DNA of 23,091 bases from a virus: positions 1 through 23,091 of the IMG/VR virus record IMGVR_UViG_3300005613_000424; one strand, 5' to 3'. The first letter of the stretch is position 1. Each line of letters begins with the position of its first letter. The notes under the pieces are model-generated. The model had not been told where the DNA came from, made no database searches, and was given only the letters and a program-made list of their open reading frames with translations. Below are positions 4,239 through 23,091 of this stretch, piece by piece. A program made the translations under genes and the position numbers.

Positions 4239-5941
4239 TATTTAATCCTCTTCTCTGTTTTTAAATCCCAAACTTCTTCTTCACCAGTTTCTGGATTTGT
4301 TACTGTTATAGTATTTTCTGTATCAAATTCAGCACCTGCTTCTCCTTCTTTAGCCACATAAAGATTAATATTTTCTCTAACACTATTAAGATTTTTAACA
4401 GTTGCTTTTATTTCATCATTTACTGATTTTAAACGGATATTAGCCATATCCCTTGTACCTTCAATAACTTTTTTAAGTTCTCTATATGATAAATTAGGAT
4501 CATGAATTTTTTCCCATTCCATTCTACCTTTTTCAGGAAGTAAAGCAACTGATGCAGATGAACCTTGAGATAACTTAAATATTTCAACACTTATTTCTTT
4601 CATGTATGCTTCAAGAACTTGTTCATGACCAGAACCTTTATATCTCATATTGAGTTCTCTTATTGGTACATCAATAGCTCTTGCACCAACTCTGCCAATA
4701 ACACTATTCATAATTTCATCAACTTTAGCAAGCTGCCCATTTATATTTAAAACAAAATTACCCATTGCACCCCTATTTCTTTGCTGTTGTACTAGAGAAC
4801 CTGAAAGAGATTTTTCAATAGCTCTAGGTTGCACAAAATTAAAATCAGGTTCTATTGCTAAAACTTTTTTTCGGACAACTTCTTGAATTGGAACACCAAA
4901 AGTATTATGAACTCTATCAATTGTTTCTTTACCAGCTAAAATAGCATCAGCTACTGCATCTAAATCCATTGCTCCATAAAGTCCTGCTAATTTTCCTTCA
5001 GTAGTAGCTTCACTTCTTAATTCTGCTTGTTCAACATTATCTCTATTCATTTCCTCTAAAACAGTTTTAGCTTCAACATCTCCTCGTAAAGCTGCCATAG
5101 TTAACTCTGTTTTATTTTTCATTGTTGGATTTAATATTTTATCTCTTTTAGCTTCATATTCTTCTGAAGTTATAAGATTATTATTAAGGTCAGTTCTTAG
5201 TTTTGCTAAATCACTATGAGGAGTAACTCTATCAATACCAATTAAATCACCAAATAATTTAGCTTGTTCAGGATTAGTATTTAAAAGATCTATATATTTA
5301 TTAAAATTTTTTGCTGCTGCTGTTTCTTTATCTTTTTCATTTTTTGTAAATCCAGTTGCTAAAGCAAAATTGTCTGCTAAATCAGGATTAGTTTTTTTAA
5401 GATCTTCCCAATATTCAAGATTAGTTATATCAGTAGTTTTTTTATCTGTTACTCTTGAAGCAGTTTTATAAGCTGCATATCTTTTAGGAGCCATAAAAGC
5501 AATTTCTTTTTCTAATTTGGCAATAGTTCCTTCTGGATCAGTTTCATACTTTTCCAAAAAAGAATCTGTTTCCATTCTTTCGTCAGGTTGAAGACCTCTA
5601 GCTTTTAAAAATGCTTGTCGTCCTCTTACTATTTTAGTAACTTCTTCAGGATTATCCGCATTTTGCATAAGTTTAAAAGAAGAATTTATATAATTATCTT
5701 TAGTAGATTGATCTCTGAATTTTACTTGCTCAGTTAATTCTTTGGCTACTTCTGGATTTTGTATAGCATATTCAGCGATAGCCATAGGATCACCAGATCT
5801 AAAAATTTCTACTGCTCTTTTTTTAACATTTTCTTTTTCTTCTTTTTCTTTTCTTTGTTGGTGGTAAGCTAAACCAGTTTGTAAACCTTGTAAACCTTGT
5901 GTAATATCAAGACTTGGGTTTATATAAAAAGGATTTGCCAT
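4238..5941 (-). CDS. Ejection (DNA injection) protein, gp20 position
   Basis: This 567-residue protein is highly charged and almost wholly helical in character, with no signal peptide or obvious enzyme motif. The opening MANPFYINPSLDITQGLQG followed by a glutamine/lysine/glutamate-rich coil (about 25-50) is typical of podophage injection proteins. It sits between the gp7-position and gp16-position genes, where P22 encodes gp20 (471 residues). Its likely role is as an internal virion protein released into the cell envelope to help form the DNA channel. The start overlaps the stop of the preceding gene (TAATG), which implies translational coupling. The assignment rests on gene order, composition and the N-terminal pattern; no single diagnostic motif is visible. 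Confidence 0.68.
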   Translation of the reverse strand: MANPFYINPSLDITQGLQGLQTGLAYHQQRKEKEEKENVKKRAVEIFRSGDPMAIAEYAIQNPEVAKELTEQVKFRDQSTKDNYINSSFKLMQNADNPEEVTKIVRGRQAFLKARGLQPDERMETDSFLEKYETDPEGTIAKLEKEIAFMAPKRYAAYKTASRVTDKKTTDITNLEYWEDLKKTNPDLADNFALATGFTKNEKDKETAAAKNFNKYIDLLNTNPEQAKLFGDLIGIDRVTPHSDLAKLRTDLNNNLITSEEYEAKRDKILNPTMKNKTELTMAALRGDVEAKTVLEEMNRDNVEQAELRSEATTEGKLAGLYGAMDLDAVADAILAGKETIDRVHNTFGVPIQEVVRKKVLAIEPDFNFVQPRAIEKSLSGSLVQQQRNRGAMGNFVLNINGQLAKVDEIMNSVIGRVGARAIDVPIRELNMRYKGSGHEQVLEAYMKEISVEIFKLSQGSSASVALLPEKGRMEWEKIHDPNLSYRELKKVIEGTRDMANIRLKSVNDEIKATVKNLNSVRENINLYVAKEGEAGAEFDTENTITVTNPETGEEEVWDLKTEKRIK

Positions 5942-6732
5942 TATAATACTCCTATAGCTGAATAATTAATCATCATAAAATTATCTTTTAATATAACTGC
6001 TTTTGGAGCTTTTTCAAAAACTTCATCAGCTAAACAACCAAATGTAGAACCTTTAAGTCCTAACATATTTGCAACGAAATTCCAATCAAAAGAATAAAAA
6101 TTAAATCCATTTATTTCACCAATTTTCTTTATATTAGTTTTAAGTCGTCTATCTGAAAACATTGCTATTGTACCAGCAATTCCTAAAGCATTATTCATAG
6201 CTTGTTGATCACTTTGAAGACCAGCTTGTGTTCCTGCTACTAATCCTTGTGCTTGTGTTTGACCAATTCCTGTCATTGTATTAGCTATTTGATTTGTATT
6301 AGAAGGAAGTCCTGCCATTCCTTTAAGACCCATTAATTGTTGATTATAAGATTCCAAAAGAGCTTGATTTTGCAATTGTGTATTATAATTGTACATATTA
6401 GCTTTTACATTTCCAGAACGTAATTTACCTGTAGCTGAAGCTGATCTTAAAATAGCTTCTTCTCCAGCTTCTTCTCCACTCATTATATTTTTATATAATG
6501 GAGATTGAATTGCTCTTTCAATCAATTCTTGTTGATTTCCTGTTCCACCTTCTAAACCATATAATCCACCAAGTTCTTGAAGAGCTCCTTCTCTAAATTG
6601 TTGTGGTATTACTTCACGTTCTTTTAAATATTCTAATGCTTCTTTTTGAGATTCTGATTGAATATTAGATGCTTCAATTACAGCATCTTCAGCATCATCA
6701 CTACCAAATATAAAATCTAATAATCCACCCAT
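5941..6732 (-). CDS. DNA-transfer/ejection protein (gp7 position) ending in a Peptidase_S74-like segment
   Basis: The first part of this 263-residue protein matches a common podophage DNA-transfer protein. It opens MGGLLDFIFGSDDAEDA, followed by a helix with QQ-rich segments. The middle contains SPLYKNIM, AGEEAILR, ASATGKLRSGN, YNTQLQNQALL, YNQQL and LPSN. From S193 the sequence changes to SDRRLKTNIKKIG, then GFNFYSFDW and ADEVFEKAP, the hallmark pattern of the Peptidase_S74 intramolecular-chaperone domain best known from the C termini of tailspikes and fibres. The segment is only about 71 residues, so it may be a shortened or non-cleaving version. A good RBS (AAGGAG) lies upstream. P22 gp7 in this map position is 229 residues. 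Confidence 0.72.
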   Translation of the reverse strand: MGGLLDFIFGSDDAEDAVIEASNIQSESQKEALEYLKEREVIPQQFREGALQELGGLYGLEGGTGNQQELIERAIQSPLYKNIMSGEEAGEEAILRSASATGKLRSGNVKANMYNYNTQLQNQALLESYNQQLMGLKGMAGLPSNTNQIANTMTGIGQTQAQGLVAGTQAGLQSDQQAMNNALGIAGTIAMFSDRRLKTNIKKIGEINGFNFYSFDWNFVANMLGLKGSTFGCLADEVFEKAPKAVILKDNFMMINYSAIGVL

Positions 6733-6733
6733 T

Positions 6734-7072
6734 TTATTTCTCCTTAGTGTAAATTAATTTATTATCAATAGCTATTGTTTTTTTAAAATCACAATGTTTT
6801 GCAAGTCTTTCAATACTTGGTTTTTCAATTATAGCTATTATCATTTTACACCAATTAAAATGATCAAATATATACTTACACCATTCTAAAAGTGCTTGTT
6901 TCAAATATCTAAGACTTTTTTTATCTGAATATAAATGACAAACAGCACCATTTCCTTGTCGTGTAATTGAAAATAATATTAAAGTATTTTTAAATAACCA
7001 TCTAAAATTTAAGTAATTTTCATTTGTCCTTAAATTATAAGTAGGTCCATAATATGGTATAAATTTTATCAT
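6734..7072 (-). CDS. Small virion protein at gp14 position, possibly GNAT-like
   Basis: This 112-residue protein starts on an ATGA overlap with the stop of the upstream gene, so the two are translationally coupled. It is basic and aromatic. The segment NGAVCHLYSDKKSLRYLKQA, then LLEWCKYIFDH, WCKMIIAIIEKPSIERLAKHC and a phenylalanine, resembles small phage proteins with a degenerate acetyltransferase (GNAT-like) fold that sit next to the ejection genes. The closest P22 counterpart by position is gp14. Whether it has any catalytic activity cannot be judged, since no acetyl-CoA loop is obvious. It contains three cysteines, unusual among its neighbours. Confidence 0.6.
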   Translation of the reverse strand: MIKFIPYYGPTYNLRTNENYLNFRWLFKNTLILFSITRQGNGAVCHLYSDKKSLRYLKQALLEWCKYIFDHFNWCKMIIAIIEKPSIERLAKHCDFKKTIAIDNKLIYTKEK

Positions 7073-7404
7073 ACTATTTCTACTACATCAAGGTTTACTG
7101 TTACTTGATCTGCTACACTAGCTATAGCACTTAATATATCAGTAGCTTCAAATATTTGTCCAACAACTTCAGGACATTCATATGTTTCTCTACTACCTAA
7201 AGCTTTTAAATTCATTATTAAATTTGCAGGATCAACAGCTACTCCATCAGGTCTTTTATTAAAACTAATAGTAACAGCACCTGCTGCATCATTTGTAGCT
7301 GTACATTTTAATACTCTTGTTATTGTATTTGCAGGACAAGTATAAATAGTTGTATCAGCTATTCCAGGTTGTGCTAAATAAACATTTTTTAATGTTATTC
7401 CCAT
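7069..7404 (-). CDS. Small beta-rich virion protein
   Basis: This 111-residue protein has a beta-sandwich-like composition and no signal peptide or coiled coil. Visible features are TTIYTCPANTITRVLKCTATN, then AAGAVTISFNKRPDG near residue 40, and SRETYECPEVVGQIFEATD in the second half. This pattern recurs in small structural or decoration-like proteins of aquatic phages. A clear RBS (AAAGGAG) precedes the ATG. It lies between the needle-position fibre and the gp14-position protein, so a tail or neck component is likely, but the exact role is unknown. Confidence 0.6.
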   Translation of the reverse strand: MGITLKNVYLAQPGIADTTIYTCPANTITRVLKCTATNDAAGAVTISFNKRPDGVAVDPANLIMNLKALGSRETYECPEVVGQIFEATDILSAIASVADQVTVNLDVVEIV

Positions 7405-7419
7405 TTTATTCTCCTTTTA

Positions 7420-8742
7420 TTAAGTCGGTTCTCCTAATTTATCCATTGTAAAGTGAAAATGAACTTGTATTAAATCTACATTAACACCTATAGTTCCACC
7501 ATTAGTATGAGATAATATCATTCCTATACAATCATGTGCAACAGCACCAGTAATACCTGTAGTAAGTTCAACTTTTGCAAGATCATGTTGAGCAGTTGCA
7601 CCTGAAATACCACTAATTGTTGTAGTTGCTCCAGTTACACTTTCTCCTTCAGCTACATTATTGTATTCTAATGTCCATTCAACAGTTCCAGTATCAACAG
7701 CATCTCTATGTGTAAATTCTACTTCAACACCTATCGCAGTACCTACAGCCATTCTATATGGACAAATTAAAGAATAATGAGCTTCATCTCCAACAGTAAA
7801 TATTAAAGTAGGAAAAACACTTAATCTACTTTCAGTAGGAGCAGTAGCTCCTAGTTTCCAAGAAGCACTAGAAACTCGAACATATCTAGTAACTCTAGCA
7901 GTTCCTACCATATTTTGAAGACCATCTGCTTCAAATGATGTATAATTAGCAGCTCCTCCAATTTTAGTTATACCTGCTGAAGATATAAATATTCTATCTG
8001 CAGAATTAGTTTGAATTCTAAAATCATGAGCACTTACAGTTCCAATTCTACCTATTGTATTACCTGCTTGAAAAAATATTTGAAGATTATTAGTAGTATC
8101 TTGAAAAAGTAATGTAGGTTGAGAAGCATGATGTATATGAATATCATAAGCAGGGGTTATTCCCATTCCTAATTTATTTATTAATACTAAATCACCATCA
8201 GCTTCTATTGTTATAGCAGCTGATGCTCCAACTGATCCAATTGTTAATCCATTTGGAATTGTAATACCACCAGTATCACTTACAATAACGAGACTATTTT
8301 GAATCCTATTTCCTGCAATTCCATCCCATCTAACAATAGCATTATCTGTTGATACTCCAGGTTTTATAATAGATATAGAATTAGTAGGAGCAATAAATTC
8401 TGTAAGTTTTAATTCATTAATTTTTTTATCATAATTTTCTGGTTCAGGAAGTAAAAGTAATTTTTTTTCTATTTCAGTTATTCTTTTATCATAATTCTCT
8501 GGTTCAGGAAGTAAAAGTAATTTTTTTTCTATTTCAGTTATTCTTTTACTATAATTTGTTGGAATATTATATATTTCTGCAACTGTTGATATAAAAGAAT
8601 CAGTAAGACTAATACTGGAAACTCCACCAACTCTATTAAAAAGAGTTCTAAAAAATTCTTGCCATTCTATGGTCATAGGGTTATTAACCCCAGTAAACAT
8701 ATTTGAAGTAGGAATTTCTGGTAATGATAATTTTTCTGTCAT
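7420..8742 (-). CDS. Tail needle-position fibre protein with duplicated coiled-coil segment
   Basis: This 440-residue protein lies directly after the gp10-like gene, where P22 encodes the gp26 tail needle (233 residues). Residues about 20-115 are helical. A 20-residue coiled-coil unit containing KRITEIEKKLLLLPEPENY is present twice in tandem (65-84 and 85-104). After about residue 120 the protein becomes a beta-rich fibre: STDNAIVRWDG near 130, then IPNGLTIGSVGASAAITI, and glycine/serine-rich strands. The C-terminal 150 residues look like a beta-sandwich knob (GTVEWTLEYNN, ending VDLIQVHFHFTMDK). The likely form is a trimeric fibre or needle plugging the tail and touching the host. Its start overlaps the upstream stop (TAATG). 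Fibre is fairly secure from sequence; needle is inference from order. Confidence 0.65.
   Translation of the reverse strand: MTEKLSLPEIPTSNMFTGVNNPMTIEWQEFFRTLFNRVGGVSSISLTDSFISTVAEIYNIPTNYSKRITEIEKKLLLLPEPENYDKRITEIEKKLLLLPEPENYDKKINELKLTEFIAPTNSISIIKPGVSTDNAIVRWDGIAGNRIQNSLVIVSDTGGITIPNGLTIGSVGASAAITIEADGDLVLINKLGMGITPAYDIHIHHASQPTLLFQDTTNNLQIFFQAGNTIGRIGTVSAHDFRIQTNSADRIFISSAGITKIGGAANYTSFEADGLQNMVGTARVTRYVRVSSASWKLGATAPTESRLSVFPTLIFTVGDEAHYSLICPYRMAVGTAIGVEVEFTHRDAVDTGTVEWTLEYNNVAEGESVTGATTTISGISGATAQHDLAKVELTTGITGAVAHDCIGMILSHTNGGTIGVNVDLIQVHFHFTMDKLGEPT
8431..8550 (-). repeat. 60-bp tandem duplication inside the needle-position gene
   Basis: Bases 8431-8490 and 8491-8550 are two adjacent 60-bp copies differing at only about three positions. 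Being a multiple of three, the duplication lengthens the coiled coil by 20 residues without disturbing the frame. The near identity points to a recent event. Confidence 0.95.
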
Positions 8743-10157: not shown

Positions 10158-10294
10158 TTTTATTATCTCTTTTATTATTTCTTTTCTTAATCTACACTGT
10201 TTATATTTGTAATCATATGTTGGTGTATTGCCTCTTGATTTTGTGTTCCCTTAAAAGCTACTCAGGGTTAGCCTTTATTCTGTTTTAATTATTG
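10158..10294. other. Intergenic gap downstream of the DGR-like variable region
   Basis: This is the longest gap within the otherwise tightly packed late operon. It begins right after the variable region's stop codon. I see no copy of the variable region (no template repeat), no U-tract terminator and no convincing promoter. A 25-codon minus-strand open stretch without a start (10187-10261) reads like a protein tail and could be a remnant. CCCT and AGGG form at best a weak hairpin near 10243-10268. Confidence 0.5.
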
Positions 10295-11827
10295 TTATCT
10301 GCAAAGCCGCCCGCAGATATGCCGATAAACATAACCCGACGAACCATACAAAGCCCAACAGAAGAACCCCGCAATACCACCACTATCAATAGTACCGCCA
10401 AACATAGCCACCCGCCAACCAGTATTTTGATAATAATAATCAGTCACATAGGTGGAGGAACTTCCTCCAACTGCTGAAGGTAAAAACCCTCTCTTGGTCT
10501 GTTCGAGAGTAGTCTGATATCCATTTGCATTATGCAGTGTAATTCCGCTTCCTCCTGTATCCTCCAACCGTGTGTAATTTGTATCAGTATCATCTGCAAA
10601 CTGAGTCTCTACATTATTGACATACGGTATATTGTCATTAACATTAATCCCGTCTACCAACTTCCAAACATGACCAAAGAAGTTTTCAATTCCTCTATAG
10701 CTCATGTAACTCCCAGTAGTTCCATCTCCGCCAGAGGTATTAGCTGTAGCATTTCCGTCTGAATTAGAATTACCTGTTTTTTCTATAGGATTGTAATTAT
10801 TCCAAGCTGGCCATGCTGAACTCCAATCTGTAAGTCCAGCACCGATCATAGACTGTGAATAGAATGAGGCATATTCTATAAGATACAATAATTGAATAGC
10901 TGAAACTAAATCGTAATCCTGTTGTCTCCAACCAGATCCTCTGTTTAAAGCAACTTCTCTAAACTGCGCTCTTGTTCCCTGATTCATAGGAGCTTTACCA
11001 GAGATACTACTCAGCTTATCTCCAGTAGTTGCAGTCCAATCCCTCTGGACTTGGATAACACACTGGTCATTTGCTTGTGTACCAGCCAGAGTTCCGGTTG
11101 CAAGATTGATATAACCCAATCCTGCTTCAAAACTTAAAATATCATACGTCCCATCATTTACAGTACTGCCACTAACTACTATCTTGTCAACTCCTGCCTC
11201 TAAATTTGAAAAAGCGTGTGCAGCCGAATCCGAGTAAATGGTATCGTCAGCACCACCATTATCCGAAAACGAGAAGGTATATGTCGCATCTGAAGGGAGA
11301 TATAAGCCATTAACATATTTCCCCTCTGATGTGTCATACAGCACACCCTCATATGCTCCTATATATCTATAGTCTACAACAGCTCCGTCTTTATTAAAAG
11401 CAGGGTGGAGAGTAAATCCGTCTAAAGGTTTCAGAGAAATATCCCACGTATGCACTGTGCCAGAGTAGCTATACCTATAATAAAACTTAGGAATCTCCAC
11501 CATCACCTGGCCATCTGTGCCATCAAGGTTAGCGCTACCTCCATCCTGCTTCTTAGTAGAGTCATCTGGATCAAGATAATATTCCACATTTCCTGAGTCA
11601 TCTACAACACAGCGTCTCATTGCTACTTGGATAGGAATAATAGAATCATCAGGTTTAGAGGCTACAGCTACGCCTTTCAAAGACCCTGTTCTCTCAATCG
11701 CACTTGGAGTACTTGTATTCTCATCCCACTGAATACCATAATATTCAACAGGAAGGGAAACAGCCTCCACATTTATAACTGAGAATAAAAAACAGATTGC
11801 TATAACTGTAAATAGTATTTTTTTCAT
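10295..11827 (-). CDS. DGR-type variable protein, C-type-lectin-like, with signal peptide
   Basis: This 510-residue protein matches the layout of phage DGR target proteins. Residues 1-22 are a signal peptide (MKKILF, hydrophobic core, VEA site). The body shows features typical of this lectin-like family: EYYGIQWDENTSTPSAIERTG, MRRCVVDD, YYLDPDDSTKK, GQVMVEIPKFYYRY, ISLKPLDGFTLHPAF, RYIGAYEGV, RAQFREVALNRGSGWRQ, SAIQLLYLIEYASFYSQS, YNPIEKTGNSN, YMSYRGIENFFGHVWK and RGFLPSAVGGSSST. An extra small beta domain (about 182-262, with SGSTVNDGTYDI) is inserted in the middle. The last 41 residues (G470 to R510) form the presumed variable ligand-binding surface. The gene is less AT-rich than its neighbours, a sign of transfer. 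Its ATG overlaps the upstream stop (ATGA). Likely role: a diversified binding protein displayed on a surface or on the tail. Confidence 0.85.
   Translation of the reverse strand: MKKILFTVIAICFLFSVINVEAVSLPVEYYGIQWDENTSTPSAIERTGSLKGVAVASKPDDSIIPIQVAMRRCVVDDSGNVEYYLDPDDSTKKQDGGSANLDGTDGQVMVEIPKFYYRYSYSGTVHTWDISLKPLDGFTLHPAFNKDGAVVDYRYIGAYEGVLYDTSEGKYVNGLYLPSDATYTFSFSDNGGADDTIYSDSAAHAFSNLEAGVDKIVVSGSTVNDGTYDILSFEAGLGYINLATGTLAGTQANDQCVIQVQRDWTATTGDKLSSISGKAPMNQGTRAQFREVALNRGSGWRQQDYDLVSAIQLLYLIEYASFYSQSMIGAGLTDWSSAWPAWNNYNPIEKTGNSNSDGNATANTSGGDGTTGSYMSYRGIENFFGHVWKLVDGINVNDNIPYVNNVETQFADDTDTNYTRLEDTGGSGITLHNANGYQTTLEQTKRGFLPSAVGGSSSTYVTDYYYQNTGWRVAMFGGTIDSGGIAGFFCWALYGSSGYVYRHICGRLCR
10298..10420 (-). 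other. Putative DGR variable region (VR)
   Basis: The final 41 sense codons of the lectin-like gene. Read on the minus strand, the 120 bases 10301-10420 contain only 11 adenines and no AA dinucleotide, against an A-rich genome. About half of the codons end in T with diverse first two bases (ACT, ATT, GAT, AGT, GGT, TAT, GTT, CGT, CAT). They sit between conserved codons such as GCG GGG TTC TTC, TCG TCG and GGG CGG CTT TGC. That is what adenine-specific mutagenic retrohoming of AAT/AAC codons leaves behind. The end GGGCGGCTTTGC is GC-rich, as initiation-of-mutagenic-homing regions are. Confidence 0.78.
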
Positions 11828-11841
11828 TGATTATCTCCTAT
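11778..11841 (-). repeat. Signal-peptide/RBS repeat, copy 1
   Basis: A 64-bp block covering the RBS and most of the signal-peptide coding sequence of the DGR-like gene. It aligns without gaps to 12107-12170, with about seven mismatches. The two genes share little beyond this block. Confidence 0.9.
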
Positions 11842-12156
11842 CTCACTATATATTTTATCAATTTTAAGTTTTATCTTTTCTGCTTCTGCTAAGATTAGAC
11901 CTCGCAAAACTTGTAATACTTCAATATCTCCCTGTAAATGATTAATCCGTACTTGTATTTTGGCTATTTGAGCATCTATCTCAGGCAATGTATAAGTCTC
12001 ATCTATATGATTCTCTGTAGTTATTCTATGCTTGATCTTGACTTGATTTATATCTGTTACTTCATAATCCTTGGTAATAGGAATATAAGTCTCGGAAGCA
12101 TGGGCCACTGAGAATAAAAAATAAATCGTTATAACTGCAAATAGTATTTTTTTCAT
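11824..12156 (-). CDS. Small signal-peptide protein with coiled coil, next to the DGR-like gene
   Basis: I cannot assign a family to this 110-residue protein. Residues 1-20 are a signal peptide (MKKILFAVITIYFLFSV then AHA before SET), almost the same as that of the following lectin-like gene. The mature part starts with a beta-like stretch (TYIPITKDYEV) and continues from about residue 55 as a long heptad-rich helix: IDAQIAKIQVRINHLQGDI, then EVLQVLRGLI and EKIKLKIDKI. It could trimerise and support the lectin-like protein. The stop overlaps the start of that gene by 4 bases (ATGA), and its own start overlaps the upstream gene by one base, so the cassette is translated as a unit. A role as a stalk or chaperone is inference. 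Confidence 0.65.
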   Translation of the reverse strand: MKKILFAVITIYFLFSVAHASETYIPITKDYEVTDINQVKIKHRITTENHIDETYTLPEIDAQIAKIQVRINHLQGDIEVLQVLRGLILAEAEKIKLKIDKIYSEIGDNQ

Positions 12157-12170
12157 TAATTACCTCCTAT
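12107..12170 (-). repeat. Signal-peptide/RBS repeat, copy 2
   Basis: Gapless match to 11778-11841 (64 bp, about seven mismatches), covering the RBS and most of the signal-peptide codons of the 110-residue gene. Confidence 0.9.
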
Positions 12171-12698
12171 TGTAAAAGCATTTGTTCCATCTATATATAA
12201 TTGTATACTTTGATATGGTTGATTTAAGACAAGTGTAGCCGCTCCATCAATATTTCCACCAGATTCAAGAGAAATTGTAATATTATGTGCTGCAGCTCCT
12301 CCACTTTCATCCTTTATAACAAATATCCGTGGGTTAGCAACAGTGCCTGAATTTTCATCTTCAGTAGAAATAGTAACTGCTCTTGCTGCTACTGTATTAT
12401 CTACAGCTATAATATAATCAGTGGTTAGTGTGGAAGGGTTATAATCAGCCGCACCTGTGGCAGTCCTTTTAACTGATTGAGCTCCATCTAATATAGTATT
12501 TCCTGTAATAGTAATATCAGTAAAAATTCCTGTTGCTGGAGTAGTAGCACCAATAGTAGTTCCATCTATTGTTCCACTTTCAATATCAACTGAAGGAAAT
12601 ATATCATTACAAAAAATAATTGGTTCAGAAGCATGCGTAAAATTAATTATACCAAAAAAACTTATTAAAATTAATACTAAAATTAATTTTTTTTTCAT
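12156..12698 (-). CDS. Fibre-like beta-repeat protein with signal peptide
   Basis: This 180-residue protein has a Sec signal peptide (MKKKLILVLILISFFG..., THA before SEP). The mature part starts with a common phage fibre motif (IESGTIDGTTIGATTPATGIFTD in two overlapping parts, about 39-60), then GNTILDGAQSV. It ends in a beta domain often found in phage fibres and surface proteins: TDYIIAVDNTVAARAVTIS, RIFVIKDESGGAAAHNITI, and YQSIQLYIDGTNAF. It is probably a trimeric beta fibre. It belongs to the signal-peptide cassette between the gp4-like and gp10-like genes and shares the HASE cleavage-site context with the 110-residue protein. An RBS (AGGAG) precedes the start. Whether it is part of the virion or exported on its own is unclear. 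Confidence 0.68.
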   Translation of the reverse strand: MKKKLILVLILISFFGIINFTHASEPIIFCNDIFPSVDIESGTIDGTTIGATTPATGIFTDITITGNTILDGAQSVKRTATGAADYNPSTLTTDYIIAVDNTVAARAVTISTEDENSGTVANPRIFVIKDESGGAAAHNITISLESGGNIDGAATLVLNQPYQSIQLYIDGTNAFTIGGN

Positions 12699-12706
12699 TA
12701 CTTCTC

Positions 12707-13225
12707 CTATCTATATAATGTAAAAGTAATCGTAGTTGTTGCATTATTTACTGCATTGTTTTCAATAAAAAGTAATTCTTCACCAGTCAATGGTCTTGAT
12801 ATAGTTGCTGGATTAAATGTGGTAATTGTAGCATTATCTATTGAATCTACACCATTACCACCAAAAACATCTATTTTACTAGTTCCCCATCCAGGTAGTA
12901 CAGATGAAGCTGCAGGACGGTATAAATAAAAATCAGTATCATCTGTTGGTCCTGTATCTCCTGGAATAATATCTATTTCTGCAATCCACCAGCCATATAA
13001 AGATTTTGTAGTCATTCCAGGTACTTTATACATAGCGATAGTTGCAGGACTTGAAGCAGTTGCTGAGAATGTTACAGTATAAGTAATAAATCGTACTTCA
13101 GTAAGTTTTGATACTCCATAATATGAGTGATCTGTACAAGTTATTTCTCCAGCAATAATAGCAATTGCATTAAATGGAACTATTAAAATAGTTAAAACAA
13201 AAATAAAAATAACAAATTTTTTCAT
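12707..13225 (-). CDS. Beta-sandwich phage structural-type protein with signal peptide
   Basis: Residues 1-22 of this 172-residue protein form a signal peptide (MKKFVIFIFVLTILIV..., AIA site). The mature part resembles a small beta-sandwich protein found near head-tail genes in many phages: ITYTVTFSA, then LYGWWIAEIDIIPGDTGPTDD, a DVFGGNGVD motif, and ISRPLTGEELLFIENNAVNN with a final TITFTLY. In relatives I know of, the corresponding motifs read PGxTxPTDxYD and DVLGGxGxN, usually without a signal peptide. It is first in the signal-peptide cassette, directly after the gp4-like gene, with a clear AAGGAG RBS. The role is unknown; a head-tail or tail accessory function is plausible. Confidence 0.65.
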   Translation of the reverse strand: MKKFVIFIFVLTILIVPFNAIAIIAGEITCTDHSYYGVSKLTEVRFITYTVTFSATASSPATIAMYKVPGMTTKSLYGWWIAEIDIIPGDTGPTDDTDFYLYRPAASSVLPGWGTSKIDVFGGNGVDSIDNATITTFNPATISRPLTGEELLFIENNAVNNATTTITFTLYR

Positions 13226-22677: not shown

Positions 22678-22800
22678 GGCGCTTCAGATTGACCCTATTA
22701 TTTTTCTGCATTGGAAATTGCAAAAGGCCTACTACCCCCTTCCCGAAAACTTTGAGTCTGAGATTGAAATTAAGATTGAAACTAATTTTAACAATAATAA
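22678..22800. other. Non-repetitive gap between the 36-bp repeats and the minisatellite
   Basis: A short stretch with a GC-richer core (around ggcgcttc and aggcctactaccccc) than the surrounding DNA. It holds no convincing gene or RNA structure. Two plus-strand frames and one minus-strand frame stay open through it into the repeats on its right; none has a good start with an RBS. It could be a packaging or replication signal, but nothing diagnostic is visible. Confidence 0.4.
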
Positions 22801-23091
22801 TTTCAATAGCAATAGTTTCAATAGCAATAGTTTCAATAGCAATAGTTTCAATAGCAATAGTTTCAATAGCAATAGTTTCAATAGCAATAGTATCAGTAAT
22901 AATAGTATCAGTAATAATAGTATCAGTAATAATAGTATCAGTAATAATAGTATCAGTAATAATAGTATCAGTAATAATAGTATCAGTAATAATAGTATCA
23001 GTAATAATAGTATCAACAACAATAGTATTAGTAATAATAGTATCAGTAATAATAGTATCAGTAATAATAGTATTAGTAATAATAGTATCAG
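22801..23091. repeat. 15-bp minisatellite reaching the right edge
   Basis: Nineteen full 15-bp units plus a partial one. First come six copies of tttcaatagcaatag (22801-22890), then units of tatcagtaataatag with variants at 23011, 23026 and 23071. The array continues past the window edge, so its full length is unknown. Because 15 is a multiple of three, two plus-strand and two minus-strand frames stay open. In one plus frame the units read as asparagine/serine-rich pentapeptides (FNSNS, then ISNNS). Coding is not established. Confidence 0.95.

What the first reader, a model, noticed from the sequence alone, without database searches (positions are those of the whole stretch)
10298..10420. DGR variable region without its reverse transcriptase or template in the window
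The last 41 codons of the lectin-like gene are adenine-poor (11 A in the 120 sense bases of 10301-10420, no AA) and rich in NNT codons with scattered first two bases. They are framed by constant codons (GWRV before; AGFF, SS and GRL within). DGR reverse transcriptases mutate template adenines, and AAT/AAC codons would yield this pattern. No template repeat or reverse transcriptase is visible here, whereas they normally sit close to the variable gene, so this may be a remote or trans-acting arrangement.
Basis: partly seen in the sequence, partly recalled or inferred. Interest (0 to 1): 0.8.

Follow-up and report, generated by a model that had tools for sequence, protein, structure and literature searches.

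The report
Orphaned hypervariable phage lectin gene
A phage gene for a lectin-like binding protein carries the clear scar of a known mutation machine (a diversity-generating retroelement), but the machine itself is missing from its normal place beside the gene, so the phage most likely carries a captured, now fixed variant.

Summary
The last 41 codons of gene 10295-11827(-) are the most adenine-poor 120 nt of that strand. They are a genuine DGR variable region (VR). The closest relative (L001, 88% identical target gene in a different phage) has a complete cassette: target, template repeat (TR), RT-17 RNA, reverse transcriptase (RT). Against L001's TR the window VR differs at 25 of 36 adenines but 3 of 82 other bases (Fisher p = 5e-14). 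The protein model matches DGR variable proteins TaqVP (Z 27) and Mtd (Z 12).
TR, DGR RNA and RT are absent from the 23-kb record, including the usual site. All 41 RT-bearing relatives carry the RT within 664 nt of the target; here a head-closure gene follows after 137 bp. The target lies in an accessory island of a podovirus-like backbone whose 46 sampled relatives carry no RT.
A trans-acting system is not excluded, but relatives favour an orphaned, probably frozen VR. RT-less targets recur across the tree, some with deletion scars. RT-less pairs show no VR hypervariation where RT-bearing pairs do. 49 of 51 related RTs keep a VR in cis.
Unexpected: the target and three neighbouring genes have signal-peptide-like N-termini.

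The parts
10295..11827 (-). DGR target gene: 510-aa tail-associated C-type-lectin-fold protein
   Evidence: phrog_5302 tail protein E 3.4e-100; AF2 model pLDDT 86.6 matches TaqVP and Mtd
10300..10417 (-). variable region (VR) core, 118 nt alignable to the TR of L001
   Evidence: 25/36 template adenines changed, 3/82 other bases changed
10284..10318 (-). GC-rich VR 3' end (IMH-like), stop codon and 11 nt beyond, shared with L001; homology to the DGR phage ends here, before its TR
   Evidence: blastn ends at 10284; sequences
10448..10747 (-). recently exchanged 3' segment of the target: 6 differences in 300 nt to L001, all at third codon positions; the 5' part of the gene is far more divergent
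10158..10294 (-). normal site of TR and RT, here a 137-bp intergenic stretch with no TR stump, no RT stump and no DGR RNA
11762..11827 (-). signal-peptide-like N-terminus of the target (MKKILFTVIAICFLFSVINVEA), absent in L001
   Evidence: heuristic scan; pLDDT under 50 for residues 1-24
10158..13225 (-). accessory island of four signal-peptide-like genes (12707, 12156, 11824, 10295) between conserved genes 13236 and 8742; replaced by two unrelated small genes (720 bp) in the near relative L260
8742..10157 (-). head-closure (Hc3) / phage stabilisation protein directly downstream, where relatives have TR and RT
   Evidence: phrog_578 E 3.7e-86, PF11134

Best explanation
10300-10417(-) is a real DGR variable region in the C-terminal C-type-lectin domain of a phage binding protein. 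Its adenine-directed variation was written by mutagenic retrohoming from a TR nearly identical to that of L001 (shown by sequence). The gene, at least its VR-bearing 3' end, was then passed by recombination into an accessory island of a phage backbone that does not normally carry a DGR. TR, DGR RNA and RT stayed behind (inferred from the mosaic and the position of the breakpoint). In this phage the VR is most likely an orphan: a fixed binding variant, renewed only by recombination with DGR phages and not diversified on the spot (inferred from relatives).
For: VR to TR of L001: 25/36 A changed, 3/82 non-A changed, p = 5e-14; codon-shuffled VRs never come below 27 non-A mismatches. The target is 88% identical to L001 over 10284-11743; beyond a second 75% stretch in the neighbouring gene (12168-12472) the two phages share no DNA similarity. 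dS to L001 falls towards the VR (0.72, 0.34, 0.11, 0.13), and an independent RT-less/RT-bearing pair, L048/L053, shows the same (1.83, 0.25, 0.03, 0.00). No RT in 46 records with related portal genes nor with the sensitive RT profile. The island is occupied differently in near relatives. RT and no-RT states need at least 15 changes on the target tree, and the window's sister is RT-bearing. Deletion scars: L048 keeps a TR stump and an RT C-terminal stump; L059 has a truncated TR; L072 keeps TR, RT-17 RNA and only the first RT codons. RT-bearing pairs differ at 20-21 of 114 VR sites with 6-14 of 900 upstream; RT-less L048/L051 differ at 0 of 114 with 25 of 900, and L023/L024 at 7 of 114 with 42 of 900.
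Against: The window is a 23-kb linear fragment, so a cassette elsewhere in its genome cannot be excluded. The frozen state is shown only for two RT-less pairs of relatives, not for this phage. The VR 3' end is intact, so it could still serve as a target if RT and TR were supplied. The two C-to-T differences from L001's TR could mean a slightly different TR of its own.
Confidence: 0.65

Rival explanations
1. Remote cassette: TR and RT lie in the unsequenced part of the same phage genome and still diversify the VR.
For: Record is a fragment; VR 3' end intact; remote VRs known in cellular genomes (PMC7517822).
Against: All 41 RTs found beside relatives of this target lie within 664 nt of it; 49 of 51 related RTs have VR and TR in cis; relatives of the backbone up to 43 kb have no RT; no other viral contig holds a TR compatible with this VR except L001.
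Confidence: 0.15
2. Trans action: the VR is diversified by RT and TR of a co-infecting phage, prophage or host.
For: Avd, TR and RT supplied from a plasmid diversify a phage VR in BPP-1 (PMC3240598). L001's TR fits the VR almost perfectly and both carry the same VR 3' end. L042, L033 and L072 keep a TR without any RT in 41-71 kb records.
Against: RT-less pairs L048/L051 and L023/L024 show no excess VR divergence; a separate clade of RT-less targets has a normal A content, 20-34 A in 105 nt.
Confidence: 0.14
3. Assembly chimera: the 3' end of the target comes from reads of an L001-like phage.
For: The 3' segment is 98% identical to L001 while the rest is not; metagenomic assembly.
Against: 9 synonymous differences in the 3' segments and a graded decline of dS; the junction falls at the end of the gene; the gene 12707 side of the island recurs on a separate contig, L259.
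Confidence: 0.05
4. No DGR history: an A-poor, G+T-rich gene end by chance or codon bias.
For: None beyond the absence of RT in the record.
Against: TR comparison p = 5e-14; fold and family.
Confidence: 0.01

Closest known systems
DGR cassette of L001 (IMGVR_UViG_3300005613_002289): target, TR, RT-17 RNA, RT
   Same: 88% identical target gene, same VR 3' end, TR explains the VR
   Different: L001 has TR, RNA and RT directly downstream and no signal peptide; its backbone is a different phage
Bordetella phage BPP-1 DGR (Mtd)
   Same: phage binding protein with C-terminal C-type-lectin VR; Mtd fold match Z about 12
   Different: BPP-1 carries avd, TR and brt in cis; none here; no conserved hairpin after the VR in this family
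Thermus aquaticus variable protein TaqVP (5vf4)
   Same: best fold match (Z 27.1, 274 residues aligned)
   Different: low sequence identity (20% over the alignment)
Remote variable proteins of cyanobacterial DGRs (PMC7517822)
   Same: VR-bearing lectin genes away from the cassette
   Different: there the TR and RT are known in the same genome; here none is known

Membership tests
DGR (complete element) | variable region at the 3' end of a target gene, adenine-directed differences from a TR | tested here: met
   25/36 A versus 3/82 non-A against the TR of L001, which lies in another record
DGR (complete element) | template repeat in the same genome | tested here: not met
   none in the 23-kb record; the rest of the genome is not available
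DGR (complete element) | DGR-type reverse transcriptase in the same genome | tested here: not met
   no RVT_1 and no match to the family RT profile in the record; the rest of the genome is not available
DGR (complete element) | DGR-associated structured RNA between TR and RT | tested here: not met
   RT-17 present in L001, L032 and L072, absent in the window
DGR (complete element) | ongoing adenine-specific diversification | not testable with these tools
   needs reads of the source sample; only one sequence of this phage is held
DGR variable protein (C-type-lectin fold, TaqVP/Mtd type) | C-type-lectin fold with the VR at its C-terminus | tested here: met
   Foldseek E 3e-8 to 5vf4; VIA-align Z 27.1 to TaqVP and 11-12 to Mtd
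phrog_5302 tail protein | profile match | tested here: met
   E 3.4e-100 over residues 28-510
remote DGR target | matching TR and RT elsewhere in the same genome | not testable with these tools
   record is a fragment

The most novel reading that the evidence does not exclude
RT-less phages keep DGR-ready variable regions that are rewritten in trans by co-infecting DGR phages, so the mutation machine is a shared good. In this phage the diversified lectin would also be exported by a signal peptide and shown on the infected cell rather than on the virion.
Probability: 0.12. Interest if true: 0.75.

Novelty: new variant of a known kind. Interest (0 to 1): 0.45.

Why it matters
The largest DGR survey states that it could not see targets away from an RT and so underestimates DGR diversity (PMC8144416). 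This family offers that missing class with closely matched RT-bearing and RT-less members, including deletion scars. It lets one ask whether losing the machine freezes a phage's binding specificity, or whether orphan VRs are served by other phages. Signal-peptide-like N-termini on phage DGR targets also contradict an earlier statement that phage DGR proteins lack them (PMC6199706).

Tried and rejected
Hairpin or cruciform after the VR as a mark of an active target: the window has an 8-bp stem in single-strand folding but no excess over shuffles (z -0.49), and only 7 of 56 family members have a perfect stem of 7 or more; dropped as evidence. TR-compatible pattern scans of all viral contigs: only L001. 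Cross-contig search for TRs of the other orphans among about 340 loci held: apart from TRs beside their own VR (L033, L042, L072), only L048 finds an equally good match, in its RT-bearing sisters. L265 (an RT 73% identical to L001's) has a TR but it fits neither the window nor the co-sampled orphan L003. RT stump after the window's VR: none; a 24-codon open stretch upstream of gene 8742 has no match. PDB by sequence and Pfam on the target: nothing.

Full report
WHAT IS THERE. Gene 10295-11827 on the minus strand encodes 510 aa, a phrog_5302 tail protein (E 3.4e-100). Its neighbours are phage structural genes: terminase, portal, major head protein and head closure. The AlphaFold2 model (pLDDT 86.6) has solved DGR variable proteins as its best matches: TaqVP of Thermus aquaticus (Foldseek E 3e-8, VIA-align Z 27.1) and Mtd of BPP-1 (Z 11-12).

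IT IS A DGR VARIABLE REGION. A scan of IMG/VR gave 170 relatives, of which 80 were fetched. The closest, L001, carries target 4879-6351, then a TR at about 6382-6499, Rfam RT-17 RNA at 6526-6614 and a reverse transcriptase 6614-7684. Over 118 nt the window VR differs from L001's TR at 25 of 36 adenines and at 3 of 82 other bases (p = 5e-14). L001's own VR differs at 22 of 36 and 3 of 82. The two VRs differ from each other at 25 sites, 21 of them template adenines. Most RT-bearing relatives show the same, typically with 0-5 non-A against 12-27 A mismatches between VR and a TR just downstream. In L037 the assembly holds a run of Ns inside the VR, and by eye all of them fall on template adenines, as expected of a mixed population.

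THE MACHINE IS ABSENT. No RT, TR or DGR RNA is found in the window. In 41 relatives the RT starts within 664 nt of the target's stop codon. Here the next gene is the head-closure protein, 137 bp on. The window record is a linear fragment, so the rest of the genome is unknown.

HOW IT GOT THERE. Apart from the target (10284-11743, 88%) and one piece of the neighbouring gene (12168-12472, 75%), window and L001 share no DNA similarity; the similarity stops 11 nt after the stop codon, before the TR. Towards the VR the synonymous divergence falls from 0.72 to about 0.12, and the 300 nt of 10448-10747 hold 6 differences, all at third positions. So the VR-bearing end was exchanged more recently than the rest. 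The same gradient appears in an independent pair, RT-less L048 against RT-bearing L053 (1.83 to 0.00). The backbone belongs to a group found through its portal gene: 46 records tested (several of 30-43 kb) have no RT, and the same holds with the family RT profile on the larger ones. Between genes 13236 and 8742 these phages carry variable cargo; L260, 91% identical in the downstream gene, has two unrelated small genes there.

ORPHANS ARE COMMON AND LOOK FROZEN. Besides the 41 RT-bearing loci, 23 loci with at least 1.5 kb downstream have no RT. On the target tree (VR excluded) RT and no-RT states need at least 15 changes; the tree cannot tell gain from loss. Scars show loss in some. L048 keeps the first part of the TR and the last codons of the RT with the middle deleted. 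In L059 the TR is cut short. L072 keeps TR, RT-17 RNA and only the first RT codons. Near-identical pairs separate the two classes. RT-bearing L053/L056/L057 differ at 20-21 of 114 VR positions with 6-14 differences in 900 nt upstream. RT-less L048/L051 differ at 0 of 114 with 25 of 900, and L023/L024 at 7 of 114 with 42 of 900. Two informative RT-less pairs are few, and L048/L051 carry most of the weight. Conversely 49 of 51 related RTs with enough upstream sequence have a VR-TR pair in cis, so dedicated trans cassettes are rare.

MECHANISM. Shown: the VR was written by adenine-mutagenic retrohoming from an L001-like TR; the cassette is not at its site; the 3' end was recently exchanged between phages. 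Inferred: the exchange left TR and RT behind, and the VR is now a fixed variant of a binding protein. Not excluded: a remote cassette in the missing half of the genome, or rewriting in trans, which works experimentally in BPP-1 with TR, avd and RT on a plasmid (PMC3240598).

EXPORT SIGNAL. The target and its three upstream neighbours begin with signal-peptide-like sequences. L001's target lacks it, and gene 12156 matches the C-terminal part of L001's 944-aa tail fibre with such a leader in front. By the same crude rule 13 of 78 targets in the family qualify, against 0 of 442 ORFs of 200 aa or more in the backbone relatives (rule there slightly stricter). No proper signal-peptide predictor was available. 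An earlier study reported that phage DGR proteins lack signal peptides (PMC6199706).

VERDICT. A genuine DGR target without its DGR in the available record; most likely an orphaned, captured variant. It is moderately interesting by itself; the family around it makes the question of orphan and remote DGR targets in phages testable.

Noticed in passing
window 10295-13225 (-): Four consecutive genes (10295, 11824, 12156, 12707) start with signal-peptide-like sequences; unusual beside phage structural genes. Gene 12156 is the C-terminal domain of a tail fibre (L001 2031-4865) with a leader in front.
   Followed up: partly
L072 4658-4990: VR, TR and RT-17 RNA intact, but the RT is gone after its first codons, and no RT in the 71-kb record: a natural candidate for trans complementation or a very fresh deletion.
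   Followed up: partly
L048 11086-11240: Deletion scar of a DGR cassette: TR stump joined to the C-terminal end of the RT; same VR in four contigs.
   Followed up: yes
L037 11170-11290: Ns in the assembly clustered in the VR at template adenines: population heterogeneity in a contig with an RT in cis.
   Followed up: yes
L042 11320-11520, L033 11221-11420: VR and complete TR without an RT in 41-kb and 50-kb records.
   Followed up: partly
window 22793-23091: 15-bp tandem repeat (AATAATAGTATCAGT, about 20 copies) at the very end of the record; probably where assembly stopped.
   Followed up: no
window 10190-10261 (-): 24-codon open stretch VAFKGTQNQEAIHQHMITNINSVD* between target and head-closure gene, no match found; perhaps a gene remnant.
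   Followed up: partly
L302, L304, L326, L334, L335: Related RTs with two VRs in cis matching one TR.
   Followed up: no
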